Assembly (NCBI RefSeq): GCF_014652875.1 | Contig: NZ_BMZQ01000004.1 | Location: forward strand, 62,001-126,000 | Length of the DNA: 64,000 bases | From: Tianweitania populi | GTDB lineage: Bacteria; Pseudomonadota; Alphaproteobacteria; Rhizobiales; Rhizobiaceae | Direction: 5' to 3' | Shown here: piece by piece, positions 3-27,884 of the stretch | How the letters are laid out: the number at the start of each line of letters is the position of its first letter | How positions within the stretch are numbered: position 1 is the first letter of the stretch | Translations under genes and position numbers: made by a program | Notes under the pieces: model-generated | What the model was told of the DNA's origin: nothing | The model's database searches: none | Seen by the model: only the letters and a program-made list of their open reading frames with translations

Positions 3-3000
3 GATCTCGTGAACCGTTTCGGCCAAACGCATCCGACATCCAAGGCGATGACGCAGGACGCCCGGGCTCACCTTGCCGATCCGCGCACGGCCGCGGGTTT
101 CCGGGCGACATGGAAAGACGCCGTGTTCCCGATCGTGGCCGCGTCAGCGAAGGGGTCGCGCATCACCGACATGGACGGCAATACTTATGTCGACCTCGTC
201 AACGGCTACGGCCAATGCGCCTTCGGCCACGCGCCGGACTTCGTGTTGCGTGCCTTGGCCGAACAAATGGAGAAAGGTTTTGCCATCGGCCCGCAGTCGC
301 CGCTGGCCGGCAAGGTCGCCGAGCGCATCGGCCGCATGATCGGCCATGAGCGCGTGACGTTCTGCAACACGGGCTCGGAGGCCGTCATGGCCGCCATGCG
401 GGTGGCCCGCAGCGTCACCGGACGCGACCGGGTCGTGGTGTTCTCCAACGACTATCACGGCCAATTCGACGAGGTTCTGGTAAAGCGCGGCGGCCGTGCG
501 GGCGCGGCGATGCCGATCGCGCCGGGCATTCCAGCGGGCTCGGTCGGCAACATGTCCGTCATCCCTTACGGGGCTCCCGAAAGTCTGGACTGGATCGCGC
601 GCCATGCGGGCGAGATCGCCGCCGTGGTGATCGAGCCGATCCAGAGCCGGCATCCGGAACTGCGCCCGGTGGAGTTCGTGCGGGAACTACGCGCGCTTAC
701 GGCGCAAAAGGACATCGCGCTGGTGTTCGACGAGGTCGTCAGCGGCTTCCGCGTGGCGCCGGGCGGCGTTCAAAGCCTGTGGGGTATTCAGGGCGACATG
801 GCGACTTATGGCAAGGTTCTGGGCGGCAGCATGCCGCTCGGCATCCTGGCCGGCAGCGCCCGCTACATGGATGCGCTCGACGGCGGCTTCTGGCGCTATG
901 GCGATGCTTCCGAGCCGGAAGTGAGCCCGACCTTCTTTGCCGGAACCTTCGTGCGCCATCCACTGACATTGGCAGCGGCTGACGCCGTGCTCACCCACAT
1001 CGAAGGCGAAGGGCGCGCGCTTTACGACCGCGTCGCGCCGCGTACGGCCGCGCTGGTCGAGGAGATCAACGCGGATCTCGCCAGCCGTGGCGTGCCGGCC
1101 CGGGCGGAGGTCTTCAGCTCCTGGTTCGTGATCAATTTCAGCCAGACCGACCCGCTCGGCAGCCTTGCCTATACGCAGCTGCGGCAGATGGGGCTGCATA
1201 TTCAGGAAGGCTTTCCCTGCTATCTCACGACCGCCCACAGCGAAGACGACTTCGCCTTCATCATCAGGACCTTCCGCGATGCAACCGACGCGCTTCAAGC
1301 TGGCGGCATTCTCTGCCCCCCTGAAGGCATGCGCCCAATGGCCGTGACGAAGCAGCCCGAGCCACCGGCCATACCGGTTTCCGCGCCGCTGACGGAGTCG
1401 CAGATGGAGATCTGGCTGGCGGCCCAAATGGGTCCCGCCGCGTCAGCCGCCTTCAACGAGTCCTTCAGCATCACCATCGACGGGTCGGTTGACGACGCAG
1501 CCCTTCAGGCCGCGCTCCGTGATGTTGCGATGCGCCACGATGCCCTGCGCACGGTTTTCGCCAAGGACGGCAAGAGCCAGTCCGTTCAGGCCGAAAGCGA
1601 GTTCGACGTCGCGCGCGTTGATCTCTCGCAGGCTCCCGACGTGGACGCGGCGATCAAGGAGATCATCGCAGCCGATGCACGCAAGCCCTTCGACCTGACG
1701 CAAGCGCCGCCCGTGCGGGCTGCCTTGCTGCGGCTGCCCGAAGGCCGAAGCCTGTTCCTGTTTACCGCGCACCACATCGTCTGCGACGGCTGGTCGGGCA
1801 ATATCATCGCCGAAGATCTCGCGACCGCCTATTCGGCACGCATGGCGGAGCGGGAATTGGACATGCCGGAAGCCGCGTCCTTCTTCCGGCACACGGCCGC
1901 AGCCAAGCCGGCCAGCGAAGGCGAAGCGGCATTCTGGCTCGACCGGTTCCAGACCGTTCCCGATCCACTCGATCTGCCTTTTGATCGCGCACGGCCCGAA
2001 CAGCGCAGCTATCAAGGTGCGACCGTCACCCGCGAACTCAGTGCCGACATGCTGAAGCGGGTCCGCAAAGCCGGCGCGGCGTATGGCTGCACGCTGTTCT
2101 CGACCCTGCTCGGCAGCTTGCATATCCTGCTAGCGCGTTTGTCCGGCCAGGAGGATTTCGCCATCGCCGTGCCCTCGGCCGGGCAGAGCCTCGATGGCAA
2201 TGAAGGGCTTGTCGGCCATTGCGTGAACCTTTTGCCGATCCGGCTGGCCTCGACGCCTTCAACCGCCCTGCGCGATCACTTCAAGGCCGTGCAGACGCAT
2301 GTTTCGGATGCTTTCGAACATCGCAGCTACACCTATGGGACACTGGTGCGTCGCCTTGCCATCAAGCCGATGCCCGGTGTGCTGCCGCTGACGCAGGTCC
2401 AGTTCAACCTTGAGCGCGTGCCCGAAGCGCTGAGCTTCGGCGGCAGGCGCGCGATGGTGACGCCCAATCCCAAGGCGTTCTCCAATTTCGACCTGTTCTT
2501 CAACGTCATTGAACAGCCCGACGGGCTGCGGCTTGATGTCGATTACAACACCGACGTCCTCGATGACGGCACAATCGCGCGCTGGATCGATTGTTTCGGA
2601 ACCCTGCTGGACGCGCTGGCTGGCAGTGAGGCGGAGACTGTCGGTGCCCTGCCTGTCGTTCCAGCCGATCAAGCGCGCTGGCTGATCGACGATCTCAACC
2701 GGACGCAAGCGCTGTTCGACGACCAAACAACCGTCGTAGACATGTTTGCCGAGCAGGTTACGCTCCGGCCAAACAGCATCGCGGTGCGCTACCGCGACCA
2801 GGCGCTCACTTATGCCGAACTCGACCAGCGCAGCACGCAGCTGGCACGGCATATCGCGTCCCTGGACCTTGGGACCGGCCAGCGCGTCGCGATAGCGGTC
2901 GAGCGATCAGCTGAAATGCTGGTGAGCCTGCTGGCTGTGATGAAGGCGGGCCACACCTATATCCCGCTTGACCCCGCCCACCCGGCCCCGCGTCTGACAC

Positions 3001-4547
3001 AAACAATGGAAATGGCGGCGGTTGCCGCAGTGATCGCCGACAGCGACGATGTGGGGGCATTACGGCCGCAGGAATCGAAGCTCATCCACGTCCATCGCGA
3101 TATGGCGGCAATATCCGCGCAGGACAAAGAACCGTTACCGCGCTCGGCGCGCGATGGCAGCGCATCGGCCTATATCATCTTCACCTCTGGCTCGACCGGC
3201 ATTCCTAAAGGTGTCGAGGTTCCGCATCGCGCGCTCACCAACTTCCTTCGATCGATGGCGAAGGAGCCCGGCTTCGGGCCGCAGGATTCCATCGTCGCGC
3301 TGACGACCATCTCGTTCGACATCGCGGCGCTGGAGCTTTATCTGCCCCTGATCTGCGGCGGCACCGTGGTCATCGCCGATCGATCCGAGGTCACGGACGG
3401 CTTTGCCCTTGTGGACCGGATCAAGGCGAGCGGTGCGAGGGTGCTGCAGGCAACGCCCACTTTGTGGCGCATGCTGCTGGAAGCCGGCTTCGAACCGGAT
3501 GCATCCATGCGCATGCTGTGCGGCGGCGAAGCGCTGCCGCGCTATCTGGCGGAACGCCTCACCCAGTCCGGCGGCACGCTGTGGAACATGTATGGCCCAA
3601 CCGAGACGACGATCTGGTCTTCCGTCGATCGTGTCGATGCCAGCCGGCCGATCACCATCGGCCACCCCATCGACAACACGTCGCTGCATATCCTTTCGCC
3701 GGAGGGGCAGTTGCAGCCGGTCGGCGCGATCGGGGAGTTGCATATCGGCGGTGTCGGTCTCGCGCATGGCTATCTCAACCAGCCCGATCTGACGGAGAAG
3801 AGCTTCCGCTCCATTGCCCTGCCGGGCCATACCATCCAGCGCCTTTACAGCACGGGCGATGTGGGGAAGCGCCTGCCGGATGGTTCGCTCCAGCTGCTCG
3901 GGCGACGCGACAATCAGGTCAAATTGCGCGGCTTCCGCATCGAGCTTGGCGATATAGAAGCCGTGCTGCGGAAGGTCAAAGGCATCGCCGATGCGGCCGT
4001 GGACGTGAAGGCAAAGGCGACCGGTGATCGTCAGCTGGTCGGCTATTATGTCTGTACGCCGGGCCAGAGCGTGTCCGCTGAAACCCTCGCTACGCAAGCT
4101 GCTGCCAAGCTGCCGGCCTACATGTTGCCGAGTGCGTGGGTGCAGCTTGAGGCCCTGCCGGAAACCGCCAACGGCAAGCTTGATCGCAAGGCGTTGCCCC
4201 TGCCCGGCTTGGCGGTATCAGCGGCGCCGACTGCATTGCAGGGTCCGACAACACAACTGGAACACGAGCTCGCCGAAATCTGGAAGAACGTGTTGGGCAT
4301 CCCCGAGGTGGATGTACGCCACAACATCTTTTCGCTGGGCGCCGATTCCCTTTCGGTGTTCCGCATTGCTGCCCGGATGATGGAGGCAGGCCTCGGTCTT
4401 GACGCGCGCGATCTCCTCAAGTTCCCGACGATCCGCGACCTCGCCCGCCACGCTGCCCAGGCGAAACCCGGCGTAGGTTCCGGTTCGGCCACCAGCCTCA
4501 AAGATTTCCGCAATGGCGCCAGGCGCGCTGCAAGGAGGGTCGCATGA
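3..4547 (+). CDS. Nonribosomal peptide synthetase, aminotransferase-C-A-PCP (5' partial)
   Basis: Builds a peptide or lipopeptide on carrier-protein thioesters in the cytoplasm. Residues are counted from a GTG at 9, but the frame is open to the window edge and the opening resembles the linker before an internal PKS/NRPS aminotransferase domain, so the true start is probably upstream. Order: class III PLP aminotransferase (about 15-440, Schiff-base Lys269 in ATYGKVLGG), condensation domain (about 460-890, HHIVCDG with His588/589), adenylation domain (about 905-1395; FTSGSTGIPKG, YGPTETT, NGKLDRKAL with Lys1390), and PCP (Ser1447 in GADSL). The ten specificity positions read by alignment to GrsA in memory are D,I,L,Q,L,G,M,I,W,K, close to known glycine codes. 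Expected upstream partner: a ketoacyl-making PKS module whose keto group is aminated. The stop overlaps the next start (ATGA). Confidence 0.93.
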   Translation, partial: DLVNRFGQTHPTSKAMTQDARAHLADPRTAAGFRATWKDAVFPIVAASAKGSRITDMDGNTYVDLVNGYGQCAFGHAPDFVLRALAEQMEKGFAIGPQSPLAGKVAERIGRMIGHERVTFCNTGSEAVMAAMRVARSVTGRDRVVVFSNDYHGQFDEVLVKRGGRAGAAMPIAPGIPAGSVGNMSVIPYGAPESLDWIARHAGEIAAVVIEPIQSRHPELRPVEFVRELRALTAQKDIALVFDEVVSGFRVAPGGVQSLWGIQGDMATYGKVLGGSMPLGILAGSARYMDALDGGFWRYGDASEPEVSPTFFAGTFVRHPLTLAAADAVLTHIEGEGRALYDRVAPRTAALVEEINADLASRGVPARAEVFSSWFVINFSQTDPLGSLAYTQLRQMGLHIQEGFPCYLTTAHSEDDFAFIIRTFRDATDALQAGGILCPPEGMRPMAVTKQPEPPAIPVSAPLTESQMEIWLAAQMGPAASAAFNESFSITIDGSVDDAALQAALRDVAMRHDALRTVFAKDGKSQSVQAESEFDVARVDLSQAPDVDAAIKEIIAADARKPFDLTQAPPVRAALLRLPEGRSLFLFTAHHIVCDGWSGNIIAEDLATAYSARMAERELDMPEAASFFRHTAAAKPASEGEAAFWLDRFQTVPDPLDLPFDRARPEQRSYQGATVTRELSADMLKRVRKAGAAYGCTLFSTLLGSLHILLARLSGQEDFAIAVPSAGQSLDGNEGLVGHCVNLLPIRLASTPSTALRDHFKAVQTHVSDAFEHRSYTYGTLVRRLAIKPMPGVLPLTQVQFNLERVPEALSFGGRRAMVTPNPKAFSNFDLFFNVIEQPDGLRLDVDYNTDVLDDGTIARWIDCFGTLLDALAGSEAETVGALPVVPADQARWLIDDLNRTQALFDDQTTVVDMFAEQVTLRPNSIAVRYRDQALTYAELDQRSTQLARHIASLDLGTGQRVAIAVERSAEMLVSLLAVMKAGHTYIPLDPAHPAPRLTQTMEMAAVAAVIADSDDVGALRPQESKLIHVHRDMAAISAQDKEPLPRSARDGSASAYIIFTSGSTGIPKGVEVPHRALTNFLRSMAKEPGFGPQDSIVALTTISFDIAALELYLPLICGGTVVIADRSEVTDGFALVDRIKASGARVLQATPTLWRMLLEAGFEPDASMRMLCGGEALPRYLAERLTQSGGTLWNMYGPTETTIWSSVDRVDASRPITIGHPIDNTSLHILSPEGQLQPVGAIGELHIGGVGLAHGYLNQPDLTEKSFRSIALPGHTIQRLYSTGDVGKRLPDGSLQLLGRRDNQVKLRGFRIELGDIEAVLRKVKGIADAAVDVKAKATGDRQLVGYYVCTPGQSVSAETLATQAAAKLPAYMLPSAWVQLEALPETANGKLDRKALPLPGLAVSAAPTALQGPTTQLEHELAEIWKNVLGIPEVDVRHNIFSLGADSLSVFRIAARMMEAGLGLDARDLLKFPTIRDLARHAAQAKPGVGSGSATSLKDFRNGARRAARRVA

Positions 4548-7306
4548 ACCAACATTCCCTTGGCGCGCGACCCCTGCCGCTTCCGAGTGTCGTTGATCGC
4601 TTTCCTTGCACGCAGTCGCAGCAGCGCTTCTGGCTGCTCGAACAGATGGCGCCCGGCAACACCTCCGCCAATGTCGCCTTGTGCTGGGAATTACGCGGGA
4701 GCTTTCAGGCGGAAACCATCGAAAAAGCGTTCCGCCAAGTGAACGACCGGCATGAGATCCTGCGCACCCGCTTTGTGGAAGAAGACTCCGTGCCACTGCA
4801 GGAAGTCGTCGATCACTGCGACTTCAAGCTCTCCGTCGTCGATCTTCGCACCGTCCCCACGGATCAGTTGGAAAAGCGGGTCGCATCCATCAGCAAAGAG
4901 GAGGCCCGTATCTCCTTCGATCTGTCGCGGGCATGCCTCCTTCGCGCCACCTTGCTCCAGCTTGCCGCAGACCGTGCCTATCTGCTGATTACCGTCCATC
5001 ATCTGTGCTTCGACGGCATGTCGATCCGCGTCCTTGGTCGCGAGATCGGCGAGATCCTCGATGCGGCGGACAACAACCGTGCACCCGAACTGCCGGAGCT
5101 TGCGCTTCAATATGGCGACTTTGCCCTGTGGGAGGAGGCACATCGGCAATCGGCGGATTTCGAGACCGAGCGATCATATTGGCGCGACAGGCTGGCCGAC
5201 GCGCCGTATTTCGAATTGCCGACGGACAAGCCGCGCGATCTGGCGCGGAGCCATGCCGGCGCAGCTGTCTCGATGCTGTTGTCCAAAGACACCTCCAACC
5301 GCATCGACGCTCTTTCCCGCAGCGAAGGGGTCAGCGTCTTCAGCCTGTCGGCGGCGATCCTGGCCGCCGTGCTTCATCGCTGGACGGGCAAGACCGACAT
5401 CGCCATCGGAACGCAGATCGCCGGCCGTGATGAGACCGACCTCGAGACGCTTCTTGGCGTCTTCATCAACAACATCGTCCTTCGCTTCGCAGTTGAGCCC
5501 GACGCCGGCTTTCAATCCCATTTGGCCGCTGCGAACGGGATAGTTAGGGATGCGCTGGTTCATCAGCATATGCCCTTCAACACGCTGGTGGAGATGCTCA
5601 ATCCGCCGCGCGATCCTGCACGCACGCCGCTGTTTTCGGTCAACATGATCGTGCAGAGGGCGTTCATGGAGGATCATCGCTACAAGCACTTCGAAATGCT
5701 TGGCCGCCCCTCTTCCACGCCTGGTGCGCTATTTGATCTCAATTTTATGATGATCGGGCGGCCGGACGGCTGGCGGGCAACCATCGAATACAATCCGGAT
5801 CTTTTCGACGCCACCACGGCAGACCGGCTTCTTGCCGACTGGACGGGGGCGATCGAGACGCTGACAGCCCATCCGGCACGCGCGATCGCGGCGCTTCCCA
5901 TCACCTTCCCGGCTGCCGCAACTGCTGTCGACCAGCCTGGTCCGGCGACGATTGAGGCGCTGCTCCTCGAACACGCGGCGGTTGCCGCCGTGAAGGCCGT
6001 TGATCCGAGCAACGGGGCCTACCGGCTTCTTGTGGTGCCTGACCCCTCCTGCACGCAGCCGCTCGAAACATTGCCGACGACACTCCTCGACCATCTATCG
6101 AAGACCGCGCCGGCTTTATCCCGGCCAATCTCGATCAGCTTGGTCATGCAATTGCCCGGCGACGTCGGCAAAAGCCTTCAAGCTAGGCCAGCCAAGGGCG
6201 ACGCCGAAACTGCCACGAATGCTCATCACGACGCGCTTGAAGCCGTGGTCAGCGAACTGTGGCGCGAGCTTCTTGGGCTTTCGGACGTGGATCGCACTGC
6301 CAACTTCTTCGATCTTGGCGGGCACTCGTTATTGGCTGTCCGCCTGATCGCAAAGCTGCGCGAGCGCTTGAACGTCAAGCTGACCACCACGGCCCTTTAC
6401 CGCGCGCCGACGATCGAGAAGCTCACAGCCGAGCTGGCGGCGTTCGCGCCCATCAACGCTGTCATCCCGGAAGAAGACACCCGCATCCACGACATCAATC
6501 CGGATGCACCGGGCATTCCGATCATCTCGATCAACAACTATTCGACGATCTACGCCATCTCCAAGCATTTCAGCACGCCGCGGCGCTGCATCAGCGTGCG
6601 GTTGGTCGATCCGGACGCGCCTTTCGAGCCCGATAACAAGAGCTTCGAGCAGATCGCCGACGCCTATGTCGAACTGGTCAAGCGCGTGCAGCCTAGAGGC
6701 CCCTATGCCCTCTTCGGCGTTTGCGTTCATGGCAATATCGCGCTGGAAATCGCACGCCGACTGATTGCCGGCGGCGACGAGGTGGCGGGGCTGTTTATCA
6801 AAGATGTCTGGGCGCCGGCCTATTCGGCCCATGTGCGAGACAACCGCAAGATCCGCCTGCTCAACAAGGTCCACGACGGTCTCCTGAGGCTTCGCAGATG
6901 GCGACGTGGGGAGTTGTCGATGTTCGACGTGCTCAGATATTATCCCATTATCCGATCGCGACGCCTGTTCCTGGTGATGGAGCGTTTCTTCGGGAACACG
7001 CTGGAAATGGAAACACGCCTGCTATCCACGACCTCGCAGGGTGCCTTTGTTTCCTACCTGGCTGCGGCCAGGAACCGGTACATGCCTGAAACCTATCCCG
7101 GCGATGTGGTGATGTTCAAGACAAACGAGTCGCCTGCCGGCCGCGACTTCGACAAGAGCCTGGGCTGGAAGGCTGTTGTTTCAGGCAGGTTCGACATTGC
7201 CGAGCTTGAGGAGATCGTGGTGTCGCGGGGCGTTGAGATCGGCACGGCCGAAGCGGCGGCCCGGATCGAAGCGACTTTGCAGCAAGCGGAGGGCGGCGGG
7301 GCTTGA
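4544..7306 (+). CDS. NRPS termination protein: C - adenylation remnant - PCP - atypical thioesterase
   Basis: Second synthetase protein, translationally coupled to the first (ATGA) and with a strong Shine-Dalgarno AAGGAGG at 4532-4538. Condensation domain about 10-440 with HHLCFDG (His152/153, Asp157). Residues about 455-560 look like only the C-terminal subdomain of an adenylation domain (LLLEHAAVAAVKAV, RLLVVPDPS, then LPGDVGKSLQARP, resembling the A10 motif); no A3-A8 core is present. PCP with Ser595 in DLGGHSLL. Thioesterase-like domain about 660-915: the nucleophile motif is GVCVHG (Cys727), and no His occurs in roughly the last 130 residues, where the catalytic His is normally found. 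It may release, transfer or merely bind the product. An amino acid for this module would have to be loaded in trans, or the C domain may condense with a soluble amine. Confidence 0.9.
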   Translation: MNQHSLGARPLPLPSVVDRFPCTQSQQRFWLLEQMAPGNTSANVALCWELRGSFQAETIEKAFRQVNDRHEILRTRFVEEDSVPLQEVVDHCDFKLSVVDLRTVPTDQLEKRVASISKEEARISFDLSRACLLRATLLQLAADRAYLLITVHHLCFDGMSIRVLGREIGEILDAADNNRAPELPELALQYGDFALWEEAHRQSADFETERSYWRDRLADAPYFELPTDKPRDLARSHAGAAVSMLLSKDTSNRIDALSRSEGVSVFSLSAAILAAVLHRWTGKTDIAIGTQIAGRDETDLETLLGVFINNIVLRFAVEPDAGFQSHLAAANGIVRDALVHQHMPFNTLVEMLNPPRDPARTPLFSVNMIVQRAFMEDHRYKHFEMLGRPSSTPGALFDLNFMMIGRPDGWRATIEYNPDLFDATTADRLLADWTGAIETLTAHPARAIAALPITFPAAATAVDQPGPATIEALLLEHAAVAAVKAVDPSNGAYRLLVVPDPSCTQPLETLPTTLLDHLSKTAPALSRPISISLVMQLPGDVGKSLQARPAKGDAETATNAHHDALEAVVSELWRELLGLSDVDRTANFFDLGGHSLLAVRLIAKLRERLNVKLTTTALYRAPTIEKLTAELAAFAPINAVIPEEDTRIHDINPDAPGIPIISINNYSTIYAISKHFSTPRRCISVRLVDPDAPFEPDNKSFEQIADAYVELVKRVQPRGPYALFGVCVHGNIALEIARRLIAGGDEVAGLFIKDVWAPAYSAHVRDNRKIRLLNKVHDGLLRLRRWRRGELSMFDVLRYYPIIRSRRLFLVMERFFGNTLEMETRLLSTTSQGAFVSYLAAARNRYMPETYPGDVVMFKTNESPAGRDFDKSLGWKAVVSGRFDIAELEEIVVSRGVEIGTAEAAARIEATLQQAEGGGA

Positions 7307-9174: not shown

Positions 9175-9948
9175 TCAGCATGAACCGCGGCCGGTCCACG
9201 CAACGCCGGCAGTTTTCAACAGGATAAAGATGTCGAGCACGAGGTTGTGTTCGCGAACATACTGCACATCCAGCCGCACGCGCTCCTCATAGGTCGTATC
9301 GCTGCGTCCGCTAATTTGCCAAAGACCTGTCAGGCCGGGCCGCACCTGGGCATAGAAGGTAAAGTCGTCATCGTAGCGGGAGATCTCGTCGGTAACGATC
9401 GGCCGGGGGCCCACCAGACTCATCTCGCCGCGCAAGACGTTCCAAAGCTGCGGCAGTTCATCGAGACTGGACTTCCTGAGCATCGCACCCAACCGGGTGA
9501 CGCGGGGGTCACGATGCAGCTTGTGGAAGGCGGCCCACTCCGACCGAGCCGCCTCGCTTGCTTCCAGATGGCAGCGCAGGAGGTGCTCGGCATTCCTCGC
9601 CATGGTGCGAAACTTGTAGCAGCGGAACATCTTGCCGCCGCGCCCTACCCGCATCTGCGAAAACAGCACAGGTGTCCCTTCCGTTACCGCCAGAGCGATG
9701 AAGATCAGGAGGAAAACCGGTAGGAAGAACAGCAGCAACATGCTTGCGCCCACAACGTCGAGCAGACGTTTTGAGGCTTCTGATGTAAGAACGGTGTGCG
9801 GCCAACCCGCATCGCCTGCGTCGACCAACACCCTCACGCCGTCGTCGATAACACGGCCTGGCAGATCCACGACAATGGCCGGCCCGCTTGCCTGCCGCAT
9901 GGTTGCAGACAGGTCGATCAATCTATCGTCTTTTTCTGCGAGGCTCAT
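9175..9948 (-). CDS. Exopolysaccharide-initiating sugar-phosphate transferase (ExoY-like)
   Basis: Transfers the first sugar-1-phosphate of the repeat unit to undecaprenyl phosphate at the inner membrane. Bacterial sugar transferase family: one hydrophobic segment at about 68-90 (VVGASMLLLFFLPVFLLIF), then the conserved catalytic region with GTPVLFSQMRVGRGGKMF, YKFRTM, LRKSSLDELPQLWNV, GEMSLVGPRP and RPGLTGLWQISGR. It is single-segment like S. meliloti ExoY, with an extra N-terminal stretch of about 60 residues. It is the last gene of the leftward polysaccharide operon, 18 bases after the beta-helix gene. The sugar (galactose or glucose) cannot be read from sequence. Confidence 0.92.
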   Translation of the reverse strand: MSLAEKDDRLIDLSATMRQASGPAIVVDLPGRVIDDGVRVLVDAGDAGWPHTVLTSEASKRLLDVVGASMLLLFFLPVFLLIFIALAVTEGTPVLFSQMRVGRGGKMFRCYKFRTMARNAEHLLRCHLEASEAARSEWAAFHKLHRDPRVTRLGAMLRKSSLDELPQLWNVLRGEMSLVGPRPIVTDEISRYDDDFTFYAQVRPGLTGLWQISGRSDTTYEERVRLDVQYVREHNLVLDIFILLKTAGVAWTGRGSC

Positions 9949-12231: not shown

Positions 12232-13685
12232 GCGAGCGCCTCCGACCTTGAAGCGTTGGCAAAGGCGGGACGGATGGTGAGAGGGACGTCAAATGACTGC
12301 CTGATGGCTGCGCGATGTGGCGCGAAAGATGCGGCCGCGATCCCACCGGCCATGACATAGACGAACAGTCCGATGTCGAAGACTGCACCAACGATGCTTT
12401 CGGCGATCAGGGCACCAACCAGTCCGCAACGCAGCGCTGTAACGAAGCGCCTATCCTCTGCGGAAAGCGTTCGTTCCAGCCGCATCCACAAAAGCGAGGC
12501 TACGAAACCGGCGAAAAGGATGAAGCCGGGCAATCCGACATTCGATAGGAGAACCAGAAGAAAGCTGGAGGCCCGCGCGCCGCCGATCCCGACTCCTAGA
12601 CCATAAGAATCGAGGAAGTTCTGGAAGGCGACCTCGTTCCACATCATGCGCTCACGGCCCGATGCGTCGGAAATCTTGCCGACAACGGTCTCTTCGAAAA
12701 ACTCCTGAACGCGGTCTGCGATGGAAGGCGCCAGCAGCAGGAGAAGCATCAGAAAGGCCAGCCCGAGCACGGCTATGGAAAACAGCGCGATCGGTCGCCG
12801 GATCGGCCTTCCAACAAAAGGACCACCGAACTCGTAAAGCACGAGAGCCAACAAGAAGACGGCCAGTCCGACATAGGCGGTACCGGATGTCGAAGCGAGG
12901 AGGAGAACCAGCATCGCTACGGCGAAACAGCCGGTCACGCGGGGTCGCTGACGGTCCAGCCAGAGACTGACCGATATGGCGAACAAAACAAGGCTGAAGC
13001 AGGCGAAGGCCGAGGCCTCGGAAAACGACCCGGTGATGCGCTTGAGGCCGCCCTTTTCGGCGTCCGTCAACAGCGCGTAGTTCGCGGTGCGAATGAAGCC
13101 GAGAAGAAAGGCTGTTCCTGTCTGATAGGTCAGCACGTCGACAATCCCGAGCAGGACATGCAGGCCGAGAACGAGGTAGATCGCCCGCCTGAGGTGACGC
13201 ATGCCATCCGGTAGCCTTGTCAGGGCGAAGGTTGCCATGAAAGTCGCCACGCCGCCGAGAAAGTAGATCAGCTGGCTCAGATACATCGAGTTGTTTTCAA
13301 GCGGGCGCAGTTGGAGCGCGGCTTTCCCGTCTGGATCGCGGACGATGGAGATGGTGTCGGTGATGCCCGCCATCATTCGGGGGAAGAACAGCGCTGAAAC
13401 GACGGCATAGATCGCCAGCAACAGCAGCCAGAAACCGGGACTTGGTGGCATCAGTGATTGCAGAACCGGCGCCGGGCCGACGCGGCGAACTGCTCGCGCC
13501 ATGTAGAACAGCAGGAAGAGGTTGGCGCAGATAACAGACAATCCGCCAACCGATGTCAGGTTGAGGGCCGCGGCTGTTCTGAGAATCGAAAGCACCGCAA
13601 TCGAGCCGATCGCGAGACCTACCGGCATGAACAGGCTTGCGAACCCGAGAACAAGCGTGAAGGCGCCAATGGCGGTAAGGCTCAT
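12228..13685 (-). CDS. Wzy-type polysaccharide polymerase (O-antigen ligase/polymerase family)
   Basis: Inner-membrane protein of 485 residues with about ten or more hydrophobic segments and a large periplasmic loop in the middle, expected to join lipid-linked repeat units. The C-terminal part has the family pattern GRERMMWNEVAFQNFLDSYGLG..GGARASSF. The ATG at 13685 is chosen because it overlaps the stop of the upstream glycosyltransferase gene (ATGA); the frame continues upstream inside that gene. Positioned with flippase, Wza-like and Wzc-like genes, which makes a Wzx/Wzy-dependent pathway likely. Confidence 0.85.
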   Translation of the reverse strand: MSLTAIGAFTLVLGFASLFMPVGLAIGSIAVLSILRTAAALNLTSVGGLSVICANLFLLFYMARAVRRVGPAPVLQSLMPPSPGFWLLLLAIYAVVSALFFPRMMAGITDTISIVRDPDGKAALQLRPLENNSMYLSQLIYFLGGVATFMATFALTRLPDGMRHLRRAIYLVLGLHVLLGIVDVLTYQTGTAFLLGFIRTANYALLTDAEKGGLKRITGSFSEASAFACFSLVLFAISVSLWLDRQRPRVTGCFAVAMLVLLLASTSGTAYVGLAVFLLALVLYEFGGPFVGRPIRRPIALFSIAVLGLAFLMLLLLLAPSIADRVQEFFEETVVGKISDASGRERMMWNEVAFQNFLDSYGLGVGIGGARASSFLLVLLSNVGLPGFILFAGFVASLLWMRLERTLSAEDRRFVTALRCGLVGALIAESIVGAVFDIGLFVYVMAGGIAAASFAPHRAAIRQSFDVPLTIRPAFANASRSEALA

Positions 13686-14953
13686 GATGCAAATCCTTCC
13701 TGCATCATCGGCGGACGGGCCGTTCCGCCTGCCTCCACCAGACAGACGCGATAGCGATCCATCAGCTGGTCGCACCAGGCGCTCTCGCTCTGCGTCAGTT
13801 CCTTCGCCTGTGATCGTGCTTGCCCTGACATGCGCTCAATCAAGGCATCGTTATCCGCGAGCCCGCGCATGGTGGCTGCGAGCGCTGCAACGGAACCGGT
13901 GGTAAAGGTGAGGCCGAAGCCACCCTGCACTGCTTCTTCCGCAATGTTGGCCTGATCATTGATAATGATCGGCAAACCGCTTCCAGCTGCTTCCACGGCA
14001 GCCATCCCGAATGGCTCCGGTCCGCGCGATGGAACGACAACCGCTCGCGCATCAACAAGCAGCGCTCCGATCTCGCTTTTGGCACGCCATCCAAGGACTT
14101 CGACCTCGGGATAGTGCGTGCGCAGCAGATCGCGGCCAGGCCCGTCACCGATGATCGCCAGATGGACCCCCGCCAAGCGTGCTGCCGCTGCTGCGTCCTC
14201 GAACCCTTTTTCGGGGTTGAGGCGCGAGATCATGTAGAACTTTGCGAAGCGCTGCGGTGAAAGGTCTTCGCGCGTGAACGGCTCGGCAGGATTGCGGATC
14301 AGATGTACCTGCGAAGCCGGCAAGCCTGCACGCAGGAACGTCGCGCGCATGTTGGGATGGATGGTGATGACCTGGCTCGACCCCGCCGCCACATCAAACA
14401 GCGCCTGCCTCACGCTCTGGCGCGACGAACGCCACAGTTTCTGGCCATAGGACCGCTTGTCGCAATGCGTCAGCAGGCATGCCGGCGACAAGGCGGTTCG
14501 TTGGCAGGCATGGGCGCTCCGGAAGTTGTATTGCAGCCCATTGGGACAGGTAAGGAAATAGTCGTGCGCATGGATCAGCATACGATCGGCCACCGGCTTC
14601 AATGCATGGAAAATCGCCGGCGACAGGATCCGAGACCACGTATGCAGATGATAAACGAGGCCGGGCTGGTCGTTCTCGGCGATCCAGGCGCGCATCATGC
14701 GAAATGCAGAAAGGTTATAAAGGCCGGTCAAGAGCGACCGGGCACGGCCCCGTTCAAGCAGCGGCGCCGATCCCAGGCTCACCACCCTGACGCCAAGTGC
14801 CTCAAGTTCGGCGCGCCCTTCGCCGGCGTCTCCCGTAACAAAGGTGACCGGTACGTCGCGCTCGCGCAGCAGTCGAGCCGACAGCAAGGCAAGGCTGGTC
14901 GCACCGCCTGCGGCGCGGGACAGATCGTTGATGATCACAACGCCGGTCAGCAT
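13682..14953 (-). CDS. Glycosyltransferase family 4
   Basis: 423-residue GT-B glycosyltransferase. The N-terminal half (IINDLSRAAGGATSLALLSARLL) matches the acceptor-binding domain; the C-terminal donor domain has SRLNPEKGFEDA, IIGDGPGRDLL and the EPFGMAAVEAAGSGLPII block containing the E-x7-E pair. The middle holds a Cys-rich stretch (CPNGLQYNFRSAHACQ, then CLLTHC) seen in several GT4 enzymes, with an unknown role. Start ATG 14953 lies 5 bases after the stop of the family 2 enzyme. It adds a sugar to the lipid-linked repeat on the cytoplasmic face; donor and linkage are not readable. Confidence 0.88.
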   Translation of the reverse strand: MLTGVVIINDLSRAAGGATSLALLSARLLRERDVPVTFVTGDAGEGRAELEALGVRVVSLGSAPLLERGRARSLLTGLYNLSAFRMMRAWIAENDQPGLVYHLHTWSRILSPAIFHALKPVADRMLIHAHDYFLTCPNGLQYNFRSAHACQRTALSPACLLTHCDKRSYGQKLWRSSRQSVRQALFDVAAGSSQVITIHPNMRATFLRAGLPASQVHLIRNPAEPFTREDLSPQRFAKFYMISRLNPEKGFEDAAAAARLAGVHLAIIGDGPGRDLLRTHYPEVEVLGWRAKSEIGALLVDARAVVVPSRGPEPFGMAAVEAAGSGLPIIINDQANIAEEAVQGGFGLTFTTGSVAALAATMRGLADNDALIERMSGQARSQAKELTQSESAWCDQLMDRYRVCLVEAGGTARPPMMQEGFAS

Positions 14954-14958
14954 GGCAG

Positions 14959-15903
14959 CTAATCCAGATCCAGAATGCGCATGGGAGACAGGCGCCCGGC
15001 GAGAAGTTCGCTCAGCCCGATCAGATTGCCCTTCAGCCGCCCGCGACGATCCACCCAGGGTTCGGGTCGGAAACTGCGGACGAGGTTCGCAATCAGGTTC
15101 CGCGCGACGCGCGTCACCGTACGGCGGGCCGTCATCCGGTTCTTGCGCCAGAGATAGATGGGGTTGGCGACCTGCGAATAGCCGAACTTGATGCCGGGTG
15201 TTCGTCCGCTCTTGGTGCCGAGATGCACGCCGCGAAGCGCGGAGCTGCGAACGATCCGCCCACAACGCGCAACGGCGCGGCTGAACTCGACGTCTTCCAG
15301 CCAGCTATACAGGGGAAGATTGGCGTCGAACCGAGCGCCCTGCTCCAGGATCGGGCGCAAACGCAACAGCATGTTGCAACCGTAAACGTTGTAAACGTCT
15401 TGCAGGGCGCCGATCCGAGATGCCCTGCCCGACCGTTGATCGTCATCAAGCACGTGGATGGCTTCAGTCAGAGGAACGCCGGAATTCTTGATGCCGTCCT
15501 TCAGCACGGTTCCCGTGGCGAGAACGACCTCGGGATGGTCATTTGCGAGCGAGATCGCCTGCTCCACAAAAGTCGTTGCGGGCACGAAGTCGTCATCGAG
15601 AAAAAGAAGGAGGCTTGCCTCAGGCCAATGCGCTTCCAGAAGATCGAGGATCGCATTGCGCTGCAGCGCCAGGCCTTTCACACCATGCAGGACCACAACA
15701 GGAAATGGCGCACGCGCCAGCGCATACTTGTCGACATCATCCACAGCCGTCCCGCAAACCACCGCGAGATCCGGGTAGGTCGACTGATGATCGAGCCGCG
15801 CAAACACCTCAGACAGCAGGTCGCGCCGACCTGCGGTTGCGATGCCGAGCACAAGAAACGGCTGCTCCGGCTTCCTCATCCAGGCGTTGTGGTATCTATC
15901 CAA
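14959..15903 (-). CDS. Glycosyltransferase family 2
   Basis: About 314 residues; GT-A fold with VLGIATAGRRDLL at the start, nucleotide-sugar region, DxD-type motif in LLLFLDDDFVP and the acceptor-side LEDVEFSRAVARCG block. Start choice: a TTG at 15903 has GGAGGG 8 bases upstream and overlaps the end of the Wzc-like gene, suggesting coupling; ATG at 15879 has no ribosome site but gives the cleaner family N-terminus (MRKPEQPFLVLG); ATG 15927 is also open. Makes one linkage of the repeat unit. Confidence 0.87.
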   Translation of the reverse strand: MDRYHNAWMRKPEQPFLVLGIATAGRRDLLSEVFARLDHQSTYPDLAVVCGTAVDDVDKYALARAPFPVVVLHGVKGLALQRNAILDLLEAHWPEASLLLFLDDDFVPATTFVEQAISLANDHPEVVLATGTVLKDGIKNSGVPLTEAIHVLDDDQRSGRASRIGALQDVYNVYGCNMLLRLRPILEQGARFDANLPLYSWLEDVEFSRAVARCGRIVRSSALRGVHLGTKSGRTPGIKFGYSQVANPIYLWRKNRMTARRTVTRVARNLIANLVRSFRPEPWVDRRGRLKGNLIGLSELLAGRLSPMRILDLD

Positions 15904-18058
15904 CGGACGAACCCTCCAAGGCGCCATCGATCATCACGGCGCGGAAGCGCGTCGGTGAGCCGGCAAGTGACGCAAGCGCGCCGGCAATATCTGCGACCGG
16001 CGTGCGGAGGTAACGGCAGCTGATCAGCAGGCCATCCAGCCCAGCGCATATGGCTCTGGCATCAGGCGCTTCCTTGAGCGGTGGCAGATCGACGATGATG
16101 ACATCGTAAATGCCAGCGGCTTCGCGCAGCGCGAGTTTCAGATATGTCGGCACGCGATGCGCATCCTTACCGGTCAGGTCGGCAAGGCTGACGAACCGGA
16201 TGCCGTCCCCGGTTTCCGTGACGGAGCGGCCGATGACAGAACGTTCCTCGCCCTCTCCGTCCTCAACGCTCTCCATCTCTTGCGTCAAACCAGAATGCAG
16301 TCGGTCCGCGTCGACAAGCAGCGTTGATGCACCGCCCGCGGCATAAAGCAGAGCCAGGTTGCTCGAGATCTGTGCGCGGCCGGCGTCGTGGTTCACAGAT
16401 GTGATGCCAAGAACCATCGGCCGCTTTTCGTTCAGCGCAATATCGAGCGAGGTCTTTGCTTCTGCGAGCGCACGAGAAAATTCGGATTGCGGTGCCGCTA
16501 ACACAGCGCGGAAGGCATCCTCTTCGAGCTCCCTCCCACGCATCCATGCGCGCAACGCGGCCAGTCGGCCGGGTCGGGGAAGCACGGCAAGGCACGGCAC
16601 GCCTGTACGGCTTTCGATCTGCCGACGCGACGTGACCCCCGGTGCGAGCGCACGTCGCATGAGCGCAGCACCGACGCCCAAAACGGCCCCGAGCACGACG
16701 CCCAGGCTGACGATCAGCGTGGTTTTCGGCTGGCTCGGCGTGAAAGGTTGCACTGCGGGCGTGACGATGCGGGCATCCGAGACGGGGAAAGACTCCCGCT
16801 GCACGGTCTGCGTGAAATGTTGCAGCATGAGTTCGTACATGCGCCGGAAGGTAGATGCGCGGCTTTCCAACTCAGCCAGCCTCACATATTGAACACTGGC
16901 TTCGCCCGCCTGATCGAGCATCTGCTCGAGCGTGTCATCGGTGCTCAAACGGTTGCGCTCGGCGGTGTCGAGTTCGAGCTTGTAGGTGGTGCGCAAACGC
17001 GTCAGCTCGCTGCGCATTTCTTCGCGGATCTGCTCGATCTCGGCGGCAACGGCGGACGGTGCTGCGCCATCTGGCCCGTAACGCGCCGACAGATCGGCTT
17101 GCCGGATGCGCGCATCGAGAAGGCGTTGGCGCAGCGTGGTCAGCACCGGCGTTTCGCCGATATCGGCATCCATGGTCTCGCTGATTGCGCCCGATCGCAG
17201 GATCGCATCCACGGCGTCGAGCCGTGCCTTCAGCCGTGAAGACTCGCCGCGTGCAGCCTGCAACTGCGTGCTTGTATCGCGCAGTTCGCGGTCGGCCAGC
17301 GGACCATCCGTGCGGGACGTGAACAAACGCTGCGAGGTTCTGAACTGTTCGACGGCCGCAGCGGCCTGATTGGCTTGCGTGCCCAGCTCGTCGAGGCGGC
17401 CTTCCAGCCATTTGGCGCCGCGTCGCGCGGCTTCGGCCTTGGAGTCGACCTTGGCGGCGATGTAGGCATCGACGATCGCGTTGGTGATCTGCGCAGCCCG
17501 CGCAGCCGAGGACGAGGAATACGAGATCTCGAGCACATAGGACTGACCAAGACGGCGCACGCCGAGACGGGCGGCATAGGCGCCCATGGCGCCGCGCAGC
17601 CGCGCATCCACTTCGTTGCCCTCGATCGAAGGCATATCCTCGAAGGCCGCCTTGATTGACCGACGGATCCTCGTCAAAAGACCGGGTTCGGCATTGTACT
17701 CCGCCTCGTTCACCAGCCCGAGCTTTTCGATCACGGCCAAAGCGATGGAGCGCGATTTGACCAGCTCGACCTCGCTGTCGACACGCGCGGACTCCATGGC
17801 CAGCGACACGGAATCCGCTTCCTGCAAAACGAGACGCGACTGGGACGTGTCGATGATGAGCCGGGCTTCGGCCGTGTAGGTCGGCAGAGCGGTTGCCGCA
17901 TAGGCCACGCTGAGTACGGTGAAGGTCACCACGCAAAGGCCGATGATCAGCCACTCCTTGCGGATGAAGTCGACGACGTCGCGCAACGAGACGTGCTCCG
18001 CCTCAGTTAACGGCTGGGCTGGCATTCCGAGCGTTGGCTGAAGCGTGACGGGGATCAT
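15896..18058 (-). CDS. Wzc/ExoP-like chain-length protein with degenerate kinase domain
   Basis: Polysaccharide co-polymerase of the inner membrane: cytoplasmic N-terminus, first membrane helix about 35-56 (LIIGLCVVTFTVLSVAYAA), large periplasmic coiled-coil region (about 60-450), second helix about 465-490 (TLIVSLGVVLGAVLGVGAALM), then a cytoplasmic BY-kinase-like domain (about 500-720). The domain keeps a Walker A'-like VDAD (583-585) and Walker B-like IIVDLPP, but where the Walker A P-loop GKS/T should be it reads DAGRAQ (Gly560-Arg561-Ala562), and there is no C-terminal Tyr cluster. It is therefore probably not an active tyrosine kinase although it may still regulate chain length. ATGA overlap with the exporter gene. 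Confidence 0.88.
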   Translation of the reverse strand: MIPVTLQPTLGMPAQPLTEAEHVSLRDVVDFIRKEWLIIGLCVVTFTVLSVAYAATALPTYTAEARLIIDTSQSRLVLQEADSVSLAMESARVDSEVELVKSRSIALAVIEKLGLVNEAEYNAEPGLLTRIRRSIKAAFEDMPSIEGNEVDARLRGAMGAYAARLGVRRLGQSYVLEISYSSSSAARAAQITNAIVDAYIAAKVDSKAEAARRGAKWLEGRLDELGTQANQAAAAVEQFRTSQRLFTSRTDGPLADRELRDTSTQLQAARGESSRLKARLDAVDAILRSGAISETMDADIGETPVLTTLRQRLLDARIRQADLSARYGPDGAAPSAVAAEIEQIREEMRSELTRLRTTYKLELDTAERNRLSTDDTLEQMLDQAGEASVQYVRLAELESRASTFRRMYELMLQHFTQTVQRESFPVSDARIVTPAVQPFTPSQPKTTLIVSLGVVLGAVLGVGAALMRRALAPGVTSRRQIESRTGVPCLAVLPRPGRLAALRAWMRGRELEEDAFRAVLAAPQSEFSRALAEAKTSLDIALNEKRPMVLGITSVNHDAGRAQISSNLALLYAAGGASTLLVDADRLHSGLTQEMESVEDGEGEERSVIGRSVTETGDGIRFVSLADLTGKDAHRVPTYLKLALREAAGIYDVIIVDLPPLKEAPDARAICAGLDGLLISCRYLRTPVADIAGALASLAGSPTRFRAVMIDGALEGSSVG

Positions 18059-19437
18059 TCCTGACCTCCCGCAACATCCGTTTGATTATCCAGTGCTGGT
18101 GCAGCGGGCACCGCAAAGGGCTGTGTCGTGATGGCGCCGACGCTTGCCTCGACGGGGGGCATTTCCACGATTTCCACGACGTCGTCGGCCATGACCGGCG
18201 TGTCGGCCGATGCCGTCAGACGGACCGTCTTGCCTTCGACGGTGCGGGCGATGGTCATCTTGAAGTTGGATTGCTGGTTGAGGAAAGCTTCGATGCTGCC
18301 GCGCGCTGCAATCGAGCTGGCCTCGAACACAAGCCGCTCGGCCGTCAGGCGGCGTTCGCCGAGCTGGTCGATGGAAGCCTGCGTATCCTGTATGTCGCGG
18401 GCGACCTGTAGCCGCTGGTCTTCCACAAGTGCGATCTTGTCGCGTTCGGCGTTTGCGATGCCCTGCCGGGCGCGAACGAGGCTTGTCGCAAGATCGAGCT
18501 GCTGCGCCTGGATGTTGCCCAGCACGCGATCCATCTCGAACTGCCGGTTTGCGGGAGCAATACCCTGTTTTACAAGGCCCGTGACACTGGCCAACTCCGA
18601 TTTGCTGGACTCCAGCTGCCGCTCGAGGACGTGCGTCTTGGCTCCTAAAGTGTCGATTTCCGTCTGCAGCAAGCCTTTTAGCGCGTCGATGGCCGCGACC
18701 TGGCGCGCAAGCTTCTCACGACGCGAGCCGAGGATCGCACGCTCTTCTGCCATGATCTGGTTGCCGGTCGCATGGCTGGTGATTGGCTGCGGAAAGGCGA
18801 TGTCGGCTGCGTCCGCCGCCTCTGCCGACAAGCGCGCACGGCGGGCCAACATGCGGACGATTTCCAGATCGATCGACGTGATGACGCCCATCTGCGTGAT
18901 GACATCACGCTCAGGACGCTGCGATGTTTCGAATGGTCGCTGTCGTCCGCCCGCAAGACTGATCGCTTTCGTGACATCCATGCCCGGCCGCCAGGGATAT
19001 TCACCCGGCTTGGAGACGGCACCGCTAACATAGACGGGACGAAACTGCGAAACTTCGACCGAGGCGACCGGAGCCGTCTGCAAACCCGTCGTCTTCTGCA
19101 TGAGAAGACCGACTTCGCTGCCGAGCTCCTCAGCGCTCTTACCGGCTGCAGGAACGGCGCCGAGCAGAGGCATCGAAATCGTACCCGCTTCGGAAACCGT
19201 ATAATCACCGTCAAGCGCTTCCCAGGTCTGGTAGGTGCCTTTCGCGGCAATCCATTCCAGCACACGGATGCGCAGCTTGTCCTGTGGCCCCAGCCGATAC
19301 CCGTCTGCCAGCGCGGGCGCGGACACGATGCCGGAAAAACAAAGAAGCGCCGCAGCGTAGACGGCCGGTCGATGACAAGCCGCGACCAACGCCCCGCCCA
19401 AGACTTGCCGCTTCAACGGCGCTGAAATCGCAACCAT
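18055..19437 (-). CDS. Polysaccharide export protein, Wza/ExoF-like
   Basis: Periplasmic/outer-membrane export component. A signal sequence (AAALLCFSGIVSAPALA) precedes a Poly_export domain (YRLGPQDKLRIRVLEW onward), an SLBB-type segment (PVYVSGAVSKPGEYPWRPGM) and a long helical region (about residues 200-370) as in ExoF, which is longer than E. coli Wza. No lipobox Cys follows the signal, so it may not be a lipoprotein. The ATG at 19437 gives a normal signal peptide; ATG 19518 would add 27 residues. First gene of the leftward operon (seven genes to 9175), whose promoter should lie in 19438-19842. Confidence 0.87.
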   Translation of the reverse strand: MVAISAPLKRQVLGGALVAACHRPAVYAAALLCFSGIVSAPALADGYRLGPQDKLRIRVLEWIAAKGTYQTWEALDGDYTVSEAGTISMPLLGAVPAAGKSAEELGSEVGLLMQKTTGLQTAPVASVEVSQFRPVYVSGAVSKPGEYPWRPGMDVTKAISLAGGRQRPFETSQRPERDVITQMGVITSIDLEIVRMLARRARLSAEAADAADIAFPQPITSHATGNQIMAEERAILGSRREKLARQVAAIDALKGLLQTEIDTLGAKTHVLERQLESSKSELASVTGLVKQGIAPANRQFEMDRVLGNIQAQQLDLATSLVRARQGIANAERDKIALVEDQRLQVARDIQDTQASIDQLGERRLTAERLVFEASSIAARGSIEAFLNQQSNFKMTIARTVEGKTVRLTASADTPVMADDVVEIVEMPPVEASVGAITTQPFAVPAAPALDNQTDVAGGQE

Positions 19438-19842
19438 GCCGGACCATCTCACACTGGGTCCCAGGCAGCGCGCACGTCTCGCATTTCCGTTTGAAGCGGA
19501 ATTACACCTCGCGAACATCAACGCCTGGGAACATCAACCCGGACACAGAATGACAAACAACGATGGTGCGGAAGCGCAGTATAAGCGCTGCAATCTGACA
19601 GGAAAAACCTGACAGCACTGCGCATTTGCCTTCTTTCATTTGGGTCATGGCCGATTGAAGATGCCAACAATTCAGCCACGGCAATGTGTTCTGCCGTGGC
19701 GATGTGTCCGCCCTTTGCGGGCAATTTGGAACCTTAGTCCAACCACGCATGGATACGTCCAGTCACGGCGCGCGCCGCCGCTTGACCTGCGCAACCGTGC
19801 CATGTCGCATCAGGGGCGCACCGAGGAAATCGGCGCGATTGC
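19438..19842. other. Divergent control region between the two polysaccharide operons
   Basis: About 400 bases, AT-richer than its surroundings between 19540 and 19690, separating the leftward exporter operon from the rightward flippase operon. It must hold both promoters. The one clear structural element is a perfect inverted repeat at 19675-19700 (listed separately). Promoter boxes cannot be assigned with confidence. Confidence 0.55.
19675..19700. promoter_or_regulatory. 9-bp inverted repeat, candidate operator
   Basis: GCCACGGCA and TGCCGTGGC are perfect reverse complements separated by 8 bases (ATGTGTTC). It lies 143 bases before the flippase start and 238 bases before the exporter start, in the shared divergent region. 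Candidate binding site for the nearby LuxR-type regulator or a global regulator; a transcript hairpin is the alternative. Confidence 0.45.
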
Positions 19843-26992: not shown

Positions 26993-27884
26993 AATACTGG
27001 TAGCGCGCACGCAGTGCCGGCGGCATGTCCACGTAACTGATCTCGGGTTCGCGTCCCATTGCCGCGAAGGTCGCCACCGCAAGCTCGCGAAAGGTCCTCG
27101 CCTGCCCGGTCCCGACATTGAAGATGCCGGCGGTGCCGGGCTTCGCCAATACGTTCAGGATGAAGCGCACGCAGTCATCGACATGGATGAAATCGCGCAT
27201 CTGCCCGCCTTCGGGATAGTCGGGGTTGTCGGACTTGAACAGGGTGACCGTCTCACCGCGCTCGATCGTCTGATAGATCTGGTGGATTACCGAGCGCATC
27301 GGCCCCTTATGGCTTTCGCGCGGCCCGTACACGTTGAAGAATTTGAGCCCAGCCCAGCTCGGCGGCGTCGGCGCACCGCGATCCCGGTCGGCGAGAATGC
27401 GACGATCCACGAAGTGCTTGCTCCAGCCATAGGCATTAAGCGGCTTCAAGCGCTCGAGCTGGCCGAGATCCTGTGTGTCATCAAAGCCGAGCGCTCCATC
27501 CCCATAGGTCGCGGCCGAGGACGCATAGATGAAGGGGATGCCAATCCGTGCACACAGCGCCCAAAGATCGAGCGAGGCGCGAATGTTCAGCCGCACGATC
27601 CTGTCGACATCCCGCTCGGTGGTGGCGGAAATCGCACCCATGTGGACGATCGCCCCGACCTCATCCTCATGGCCGGAAAGCCAGCGCGGAAGATCATCGA
27701 TCGCGATGATGTCGTGGAAGGTGCCTTCGCGCAGATTCATCCAACGGGCATCGGCACCAAGATCGTCGCAGATCACAACCTGTCTGCCTTGAGCGGCTAG
27801 CGCCAACGCCACATTGGACCCGATGAAGCCAGCTCCGCCGGTGACCAGCACCAGCCCGGTGTGATCGGTTACGGACCCGTCCAT
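26877..27884 (-). CDS. hldD: ADP-L-glycero-D-manno-heptose 6-epimerase
   Basis: 335-residue extended SDR enzyme: GGAGFIGSNVALALAAQG nucleotide-binding loop, YASSAATYGDG and the YGWSKHFVD active-site Tyr/Lys, FFNVYGPRESHKGPMRSV and GGQMRDFIHVDDC, all typical of HldD/RfaD. Converts ADP-D-glycero- to ADP-L-glycero-manno-heptose. ATG 27884 is preceded by GAGGGTGG; the frame is open further up to 27917. It is convergent with, and overlaps, the gmhB 3' end, and divergent from the phosphopantetheinyl transferase gene across 177 bases. Confidence 0.94.
   Translation of the reverse strand: MDGSVTDHTGLVLVTGGAGFIGSNVALALAAQGRQVVICDDLGADARWMNLREGTFHDIIAIDDLPRWLSGHEDEVGAIVHMGAISATTERDVDRIVRLNIRASLDLWALCARIGIPFIYASSAATYGDGALGFDDTQDLGQLERLKPLNAYGWSKHFVDRRILADRDRGAPTPPSWAGLKFFNVYGPRESHKGPMRSVIHQIYQTIERGETVTLFKSDNPDYPEGGQMRDFIHVDDCVRFILNVLAKPGTAGIFNVGTGQARTFRELAVATFAAMGREPEISYVDMPPALRARYQYFTEAKTGRGVAGQLAPNYRSLEDGAAEYVAWLRDNPDF

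What the first reader, a model, noticed from the sequence alone, without database searches (positions are those of the whole stretch)
5880..6300. NRPS termination module with its adenylation core deleted
Between condensation domain and carrier protein there are only about 110 residues that resemble the C-terminal subdomain of an adenylation domain (an A10-like LPGDVGKSLQARP), with no A3-A8 core. The frame is intact and the condensation motif HHLCFDG and carrier Ser595 are kept, so the module looks remodelled rather than dead. It may need a stand-alone adenylating enzyme, or accept a free amine, alcohol or sugar.
Basis: partly seen in the sequence, partly recalled or inferred. Interest (0 to 1): 0.7.

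Follow-up and report, generated by a model that had tools for sequence, protein, structure and literature searches.

The report
Peptide-synthesis module missing its activating domain
The last module of a small peptide/polyketide assembly line has lost the part that would activate its amino acid but kept its other parts; dozens of related bacteria share the loss, often with polysaccharide genes next door, so it looks like an inherited design that probably borrows activation from the neighbouring module.

Summary
Window 4544-7306 (+) encodes 920 aa: condensation domain, ~116-residue linker, carrier domain (Ser595), thioesterase-like domain. The linker is a real relic of the C-terminal subdomain of an adenylation (A) domain; about 420 residues of A core are missing.

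It is neither a one-off nor an assembly error. Of 40 aligned members (window included), 23 have a relic-length linker, 15 a shorter one, and 2 (L054, L159) the intact module. A condensation-domain tree needs three changes: most simply one loss of the core, then two of the relic.

Best explanation: the A domain of the preceding module charges both carriers. Its pocket code, DILQLGMIW, is one residue from a published glycine code and equals that of both intact module-2 A domains. It is the only domain in this genome above the amino-acid adenylation cut-off. Fungal SidD, with a truncated A domain, works this way. Loading itself is inferred.

Unexpected: 18 of 30 family loci, but 0 of 28 and 0 of 14 control NRPS loci, carry two or more polysaccharide genes like those of the window. 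The product may belong to an exopolysaccharide; how it is attached or released is unknown.

Novelty: a new variant of a known kind.

The parts
4544..7306 (+). A-less NRPS termination protein, 920 aa (C - A_sub relic - PCP - TE-like)
4598..5899 (+). Condensation domain, residues 19-452; HHLCFDG at 152-158
5942..6190 (+). Relic of the A-domain C-terminal subdomain, residues 467-549
6248..6430 (+). Carrier domain PCP2, residues 569-629, Ser595
6485..7294 (+). Thioesterase-like domain, about residues 648-917 (Pfam hit 674-769); Cys727, Asp754; usual His absent
3..4547 (+). End of the preceding 2737-aa protein KS-AT-ACP-aminotransferase-C-A-PCP, which begins upstream of the window (L103:8334)
2745..3776 (+). 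Module-1 A domain core (A1), pocket code DILQLGMIW; proposed loader of PCP1 and PCP2
3954..4178 (+). A1 C-terminal subdomain (intact comparison for the relic)
4266..4451 (+). Carrier domain PCP1
9175..9948 (-). Bacterial sugar transferase (exopolysaccharide neighbour)
13682..15265 (-). Glycosyltransferase group 1
15896..18058 (-). Wzz/GNVR chain-length protein
18055..19521 (-). Polysaccharide export protein (Poly_export, SLBB)
19843..21330 (+). Polysaccharide flippase-type protein
21327..22601 (+). Polysaccharide pyruvyl transferase
27861..28844 (+). 4'-phosphopantetheinyl transferase, homologous to the one beside relatives (37.9% to that of L028)

Best explanation
The protein is the termination module of a two-protein PKS-NRPS line. 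Its own adenylation core was lost in an ancestor of the family; the C-terminal subdomain stays as a folded spacer between C and PCP. The glycine-type domain A1 of the preceding module loads glycine on PCP1 and, across the protein junction, on PCP2; the C domain joins the growing chain to glycyl-PCP2; the thioesterase-like domain takes the chain on its Cys and lets it go, perhaps to the neighbouring polysaccharide. Shown: architecture, homology of the relic, shared ancestry of the loss, one amino-acid A domain above cut-off in the genome, equal pocket codes, polysaccharide neighbourhood. Inferred: glycine as substrate, loading of PCP2 by A1, the step at the thioesterase-like domain and the final acceptor.
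For: Of 16 matches to TIGR01733 in the genome (99.17% complete) only A1 is over the cut-off; PP-binding has six matches, none in an [A-T] protein other than this line's. A1 code DILQLGMIW in 29 of 32 module-1 A domains of the family; both intact module-2 A domains (L054, L159) have the same nine letters; of 130 A domains from control loci 0 do, 5 are within one change, 9 within three. The Gly-incorporating Bat2 domain has DILQLGLIWK in PMC4831472 Table 1 (section read), at the same residue spacing. Carrier Ser in 40 of 40 rows. Precedents: SidD module 2 has an A domain lacking ~290 residues and A1 loads both T domains (PMC10192304, passages); the HMWP2 A domain loads PCP3 of HMWP1 in trans (PMC9547227, passages).
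Against: No loading was measured. PCP2 shows no special likeness to PCP1: 35% in the window, 25-38% over 27 A-less members, 29% in both intact ones (29 compared). HQ replaces HH in the condensation motif of 32 of 40 members, so the condensation step may be changed in most of the family, though the window keeps HH. The window's thioesterase-like domain lacks the usual His. The window genome also lacks the starter A-PCP of relatives, so the line may be altered there as a whole.
Confidence: 0.58

Rival explanations
1. The C domain passes the chain from PCP1 directly to a free amine, such as an amino sugar of the polysaccharide pathway, so no amino acid need be activated for module 2.
For: Polysaccharide genes around the family. 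HQ motif in 32 of 40 members; streptothricin ORF18, a C-PCP protein with HQxxxDM, joins a PCP-bound beta-lysine chain to the aminoglycoside streptothrisamine (PMC11546977, passage). DegT-type aminotransferase homologues in 20 of 40 loci.
Against: The window has HH and no DegT homologue in the window, L103 or L104. PCP Ser and TE Cys would have no evident task, yet are kept. HQ also occurs in Rhodobacterales loci in which no DegT homologue was found.
Confidence: 0.17
2. Module 2 no longer elongates: C is a docking or gating part, and the chain goes from PCP1 to the thioesterase-like domain without a second residue.
For: A core lost in 38 of 40 members and the second His of the C motif replaced in 32 of 40.
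Against: PCP Ser kept in 40 of 40; C is the best conserved part (about 50% identity to the window in Rhizobiaceae against about 27% for PCP-TE). The review read in passages says that mutation of the second His does not always abolish activity.
Confidence: 0.15
3. A separate adenylating enzyme charges PCP2.
For: Known for SyrE/SyrB1 and albicidin (PMC8949500 section 14); relatives have a separate A-PCP starter. The window itself encodes an acyl-CoA-ligase-like protein at 46726-48327.
Against: No second domain over the amino-acid adenylation cut-off in this genome and no separate A-PCP. The starter codes of relatives are not glycine-like (DAFLLGAVM and others).
Confidence: 0.06
4. The module is decaying and inactive in this organism.
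For: No starter A-PCP in the genome, usual TE His absent, relic close to noise in the window alone (8.0 bits against 6.2 for the best shuffle); no match in the two same-genus genomes searched.
Against: Long open frames, intact C motif, PCP Ser and TE Cys; loss of the core and of the TE His are shared with other genomes, not private.
Confidence: 0.04

Closest known systems
Fungal SidD/Nps6 module 2 with truncated dA domain (PMC10192304, passages seen)
   Same: Second module keeps only a C-terminal part of its A domain; the first module's A domain serves both carriers.
   Different: Fungal, iterative, other substrate; there the loading is reported as demonstrated, here it is inferred. Here two proteins, a PKS part and a TE-like domain.
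Yersiniabactin HMWP1 terminal carrier loaded by HMWP2 (PMC9547227, passages seen)
   Same: Carrier without its own A domain charged from another protein in a hybrid PKS-NRPS line.
   Different: Cy instead of C domain, cysteine instead of a glycine-type code; the passages mention no A relic.
Syringomycin SyrE module 9 with SyrB1 (PMC8949500 section 14 read)
   Same: C-T-TE termination module without A domain.
   Different: Served by a stand-alone [A-T] protein; none found in this genome.
Streptothricin ORF18 (PMC11546977, passage seen)
   Same: C-PCP without A domain; HQ motif as in 32 of 40 members; sugar-containing acceptor.
   Different: The window has HH and a TE-like domain; no sequence comparison with ORF18 was made.
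AlmEFG and Dlt systems (PMC12930378, passages seen)
   Same: Carrier-bound amino acid destined for a surface glycoconjugate or polymer.
   Different: Single-step systems, not an assembly line; no sequence comparison was made.
Obafluorin ObiF1 TE (PMC6668435, passages seen)
   Same: Cys nucleophile in GxCxG.
   Different: ObiF1 has Cys-His-Asp; the usual His is missing here.

Membership tests
Canonical NRPS termination module C-A-PCP-TE | C domain with HHxxxDG | tested here: met
   PF00668 308 bits; HHLCFDG 152-158
Canonical NRPS termination module C-A-PCP-TE | complete A domain | tested here: not met
   no PF00501 hit, only the relic
Canonical NRPS termination module C-A-PCP-TE | carrier domain with phosphopantetheine Ser | tested here: met
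   PF00550 60.5 bits, Ser595
Canonical NRPS termination module C-A-PCP-TE | TE with nucleophile-His-Asp triad | tested here: not met
   Cys727 and Asp754 kept; no His at the aligned place and none in residues 828-920. By alignment; the structure was not inspected.
Module with truncated A domain served by another module (SidD type) | A domain reduced to its C-terminal part | tested here: met
Module with truncated A domain served by another module (SidD type) | another A domain of fitting specificity in the line | tested here: met
   A1 over the TIGR01733 cut-off; code equal to intact module-2 A domains of relatives; sequence evidence only
Module with truncated A domain served by another module (SidD type) | that A domain loads both carriers | not testable with these tools
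   needs biochemistry
SyrE/SyrB1 type | stand-alone [A-T] loader in the genome | tested here: not met
HMWP1 type | Cy domain with DxxxxD in place of HHxxxDG | tested here: not met
   HHLCFDG present
AlmEFG/Dlt type | dedicated transferase (AlmG, DltB/DltD) | not tested
   no search made

The most novel reading that the evidence does not exclude
An alphaproteobacterial PKS-NRPS line, found scattered over several families, builds an amino-polyketide-glycyl chain that is installed on the repeat unit of an exopolysaccharide. Its last module has shed its adenylation domain in steps (core first, relic later), and its Cys thioesterase-like domain, which in one clade lacks the usual His, has become a transferase that hands the chain to a sugar.
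Probability: 0.33. Interest if true: 0.82.

Novelty: new variant of a known kind. Interest (0 to 1): 0.6.

Why it matters
It gives a bacterial series of a domain being dismantled inside an assembly line: intact, core lost, relic lost, with relatives to compare at each stage. If A1 serves both carriers, the family is a natural experiment on how an adenylation domain comes to charge a second carrier, a point of use in engineering NRPS lines. If the product is part of an exopolysaccharide, it would join two fields usually kept apart, non-ribosomal synthesis and polysaccharide assembly, in soil, marine and nodule-associated bacteria.

Tried and rejected
Assembly deletion: rejected, the missing core is shared by 38 of 40 members from many separate assemblies. 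Orphan adenylation protein: searched with PF00501 (16 matches) and TIGR01733 (16 matches, one over cut-off); ten of the others scanned against NCBIfam, best models CoA ligases or related, among them the window's own 46726-48327; the remaining ones were judged by the TIGR01733 scores alone. Likeness of PCP2 to PCP1 as a sign of a shared loader: no difference between A-less and intact members. Correlation of HQ with DegT: not clear, HQ also in Rhodobacterales loci without a DegT hit. LgrA module 2, the first PDB match of A1 by sequence, was considered as a glycine reference but its pocket motifs differ; the Bat2 code was used instead. The search for the literal string DILQLGLIWK found no paper; the code stands letter by letter in the table of PMC4831472.

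Literature: no paper describing this family or an exopolysaccharide-linked PKS-NRPS came up (no paper met the terms; 8 listed, judged by listing; 96 papers met the terms, 15 listed, judged by listing; one opened, PMC6256449, passages: it names exopolysaccharide and NRPS genes in general terms). The library lacks most subscription journals, so this is weak evidence of novelty.

Full report
1. What is there. The frame 4544-7306 (+) is open over 920 codons. Pfam finds Condensation 19-452, PP-binding 569-629 and Thioesterase 674-769; AMP-binding is absent and AMP-binding_C appears below its cut-off at 470-538. The start overlaps the stop of the preceding gene, whose 2737-aa product (L103:8334-16547; its last 4.5 kb are in the window) is KS-AT-ACP-aminotransferase-C-A-PCP.

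2. The linker is an A_sub relic. In the window alone the evidence is thin (E 0.062; 8.0 bits against 6.2 for the best shuffle). In the family it is firm: 18 of 19 relic-type linkers beat the best listed shuffle (894 of 950 listed; L032 does not), 0 of 13 short linkers do, and hhalign gives probability 98.0, E 1.8e-13. The model of the linker alone has mean pLDDT 71.7; the 50 Foldseek rows shown are adenylate-forming enzymes (best E 2.1e-4) and VIA-align Z reaches 10.5. The full model (mean pLDDT 81.0, pTM 0.53) has as its best Foldseek row AB3403, a four-domain NRPS, followed by SrfA-C. None of the other 17 linkers of the alignment keeps a lysine at the A10 place; the window's GK may be the old lysine or chance. 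Without the core it could not adenylate in either case.

3. The loss is old and shared. A scan of genome contigs kept the best 80 of 142 relatives, 79 loci; 31 of them (L024-L054) belong to the family by length and identity. With G053 (L005/L160), G377 (L159) and plasmid loci, 40 rows were aligned, the window included: C-to-PCP length (window residues 440-575) 136-160 in 23, 51-73 in 15, and 559 and 555 in L054 and L159, which have the whole A domain. The linkers of L162-L165 were placed by length only. L159 has the same order of three genes, A-PCP, KS...PCP, C-A-PCP-TE; the L054 contig begins inside the preceding gene. In a tree of 45 C domains the 31 A-less rows form one group (100/100) inside a group of 33 with L054 and L159 (100/99); the three states need 3 changes. 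With intact forms outside, that reads as one loss of the core and two later losses of the relic (Rhizobiaceae; L053, a long branch of unsure place). L162-L166 were not in that tree. The family is scattered: in an even draw of 385 genomes of the class only the window's genome and G377 stood out as members, and among 101 kin genomes the window's, G053 and G041; the two same-genus genomes had no match.

4. Who loads PCP2? In the genome (99.17% complete) PF00501 has 16 matches; TIGR01733 also has 16, and only A1 passes its cut-off (407 bits against 317; next 192). PF00668 has two matches, both in these two proteins; PP-binding six, three of them in these two proteins. A1 carries the pocket code DILQLGMIW. 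Of 32 module-1 A domains of the family 29 have exactly this, the others one or two changes away (L024, L159, L054); both intact module-2 A domains have exactly this; of 130 control A domains 0 do, 5 lie within one change and 9 within three. PMC4831472 Table 1 gives DILQLGLIWK for the Gly-incorporating Bat2 domain, with the same distances between the nine positions (0, 1, 4, 43, 66, 68, 90, 98, 99, my count). So before its loss the second A domain probably took the same amino acid as the first and was dispensable once A1 could serve both carriers. Precedents are in print: SidD (PMC10192304, passages) and HMWP2/HMWP1 (PMC9547227, passages). This is inference from sequence; PCP1/PCP2 identities do not help.

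5. Polysaccharide neighbourhood. Next to the line the window holds a sugar transferase, glycosyltransferase, Wzz, export protein, flippase and pyruvyl transferase and a phosphopantetheinyl transferase. With eight proteins of the window as seeds, 18 of 30 family loci of 14 kb or more have two or more, against 0 of 28 loci taken from L055-L102 and 0 of 14 NRPS loci from genomes of the class (16 fetched, two too short). The 12 without are L159 and 11 Rhizobiaceae loci whose flanks end inside the line; five plasmid loci with longer flanks, three of them Rhizobiaceae, have 5 to 8 seeds. These five were picked from the top of the list, not at random, and many loci are near kin, so the Fisher values (2e-7 and 1e-4) are nominal. 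Annotated examples show the line among polysaccharide genes in Rhizobium CCGE531, Loktanella and Jannaschia, and in part in Rhodobacter CZR27 and Rhizobium SL42. A smaller relative, L161, pairs an A protein with a PCP-TE protein beside a sugar-transferase homologue.

6. Results that do not fit neatly. HQ replaces HH in the C motif of 32 of 40 members; the window has HH. The review read in passages says the role of this His is debated and cites ORF18 of streptothricin, with HQxxxDM, as joining a chain to an aminoglycoside. The thioesterase-like domain has Cys in 39 of 40 rows; in the 40th, L039, the frame breaks before it, and the C counted there is chance. In the window and nine relatives the usual His is missing and CVHG stands where others have CVNG, CVDG, CVAG or the like; these ten form one group (SH-aLRT 94, quick tree of 38 rows). 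The window genome has no starter A-PCP, unlike relatives, so what primes the KS is unknown.

7. Verdict. Observation confirmed; the module is a remodelled, inherited form. As a mechanism it works like known modules with truncated or missing A domains; as a family it fails the definition of a complete termination module. Novelty: new variant of a known kind. The link with exopolysaccharide genes is the part that deserves follow-up.

Noticed in passing
4544-7306, residues 152-158, and relatives: Second His of the condensation motif is Gln in 32 of 40 members; the window keeps HH. Recalls ORF18 of streptothricin.
   Followed up: partly
6485-7294: Thioesterase-like domain with Cys nucleophile; usual His missing in a group of ten, which all have CVHG at the nucleophile.
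   Followed up: partly
L103:8334-16547, start of the line: No starter A-PCP in the window genome although relatives have one; the KS keeps its Cys (SACSTS), so its primer is unknown.
   Followed up: partly
L104:230-1747: Homologue (30%) of the GINT1_N protein that lies behind the line in Rhizobiales, about 20 kb upstream of the line here.
   Followed up: no
7384-8064 and 8058-8858 (-): Response regulator and histidine kinase directly behind the termination gene, on the other strand.
   Followed up: no
46726-48327: Acyl-CoA-ligase-like protein in the window; below the amino-acid adenylation cut-off.
   Followed up: partly
L161:9565-12621: A protein and PCP-TE protein with Cys nucleophile (GFCFAG) and a His kept, near a sugar-transferase homologue: a possible minimal version.
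   Followed up: partly
L039:4560-6893: Termination gene of this Nitratireductor record has its frame broken behind the PCP.
   Followed up: no
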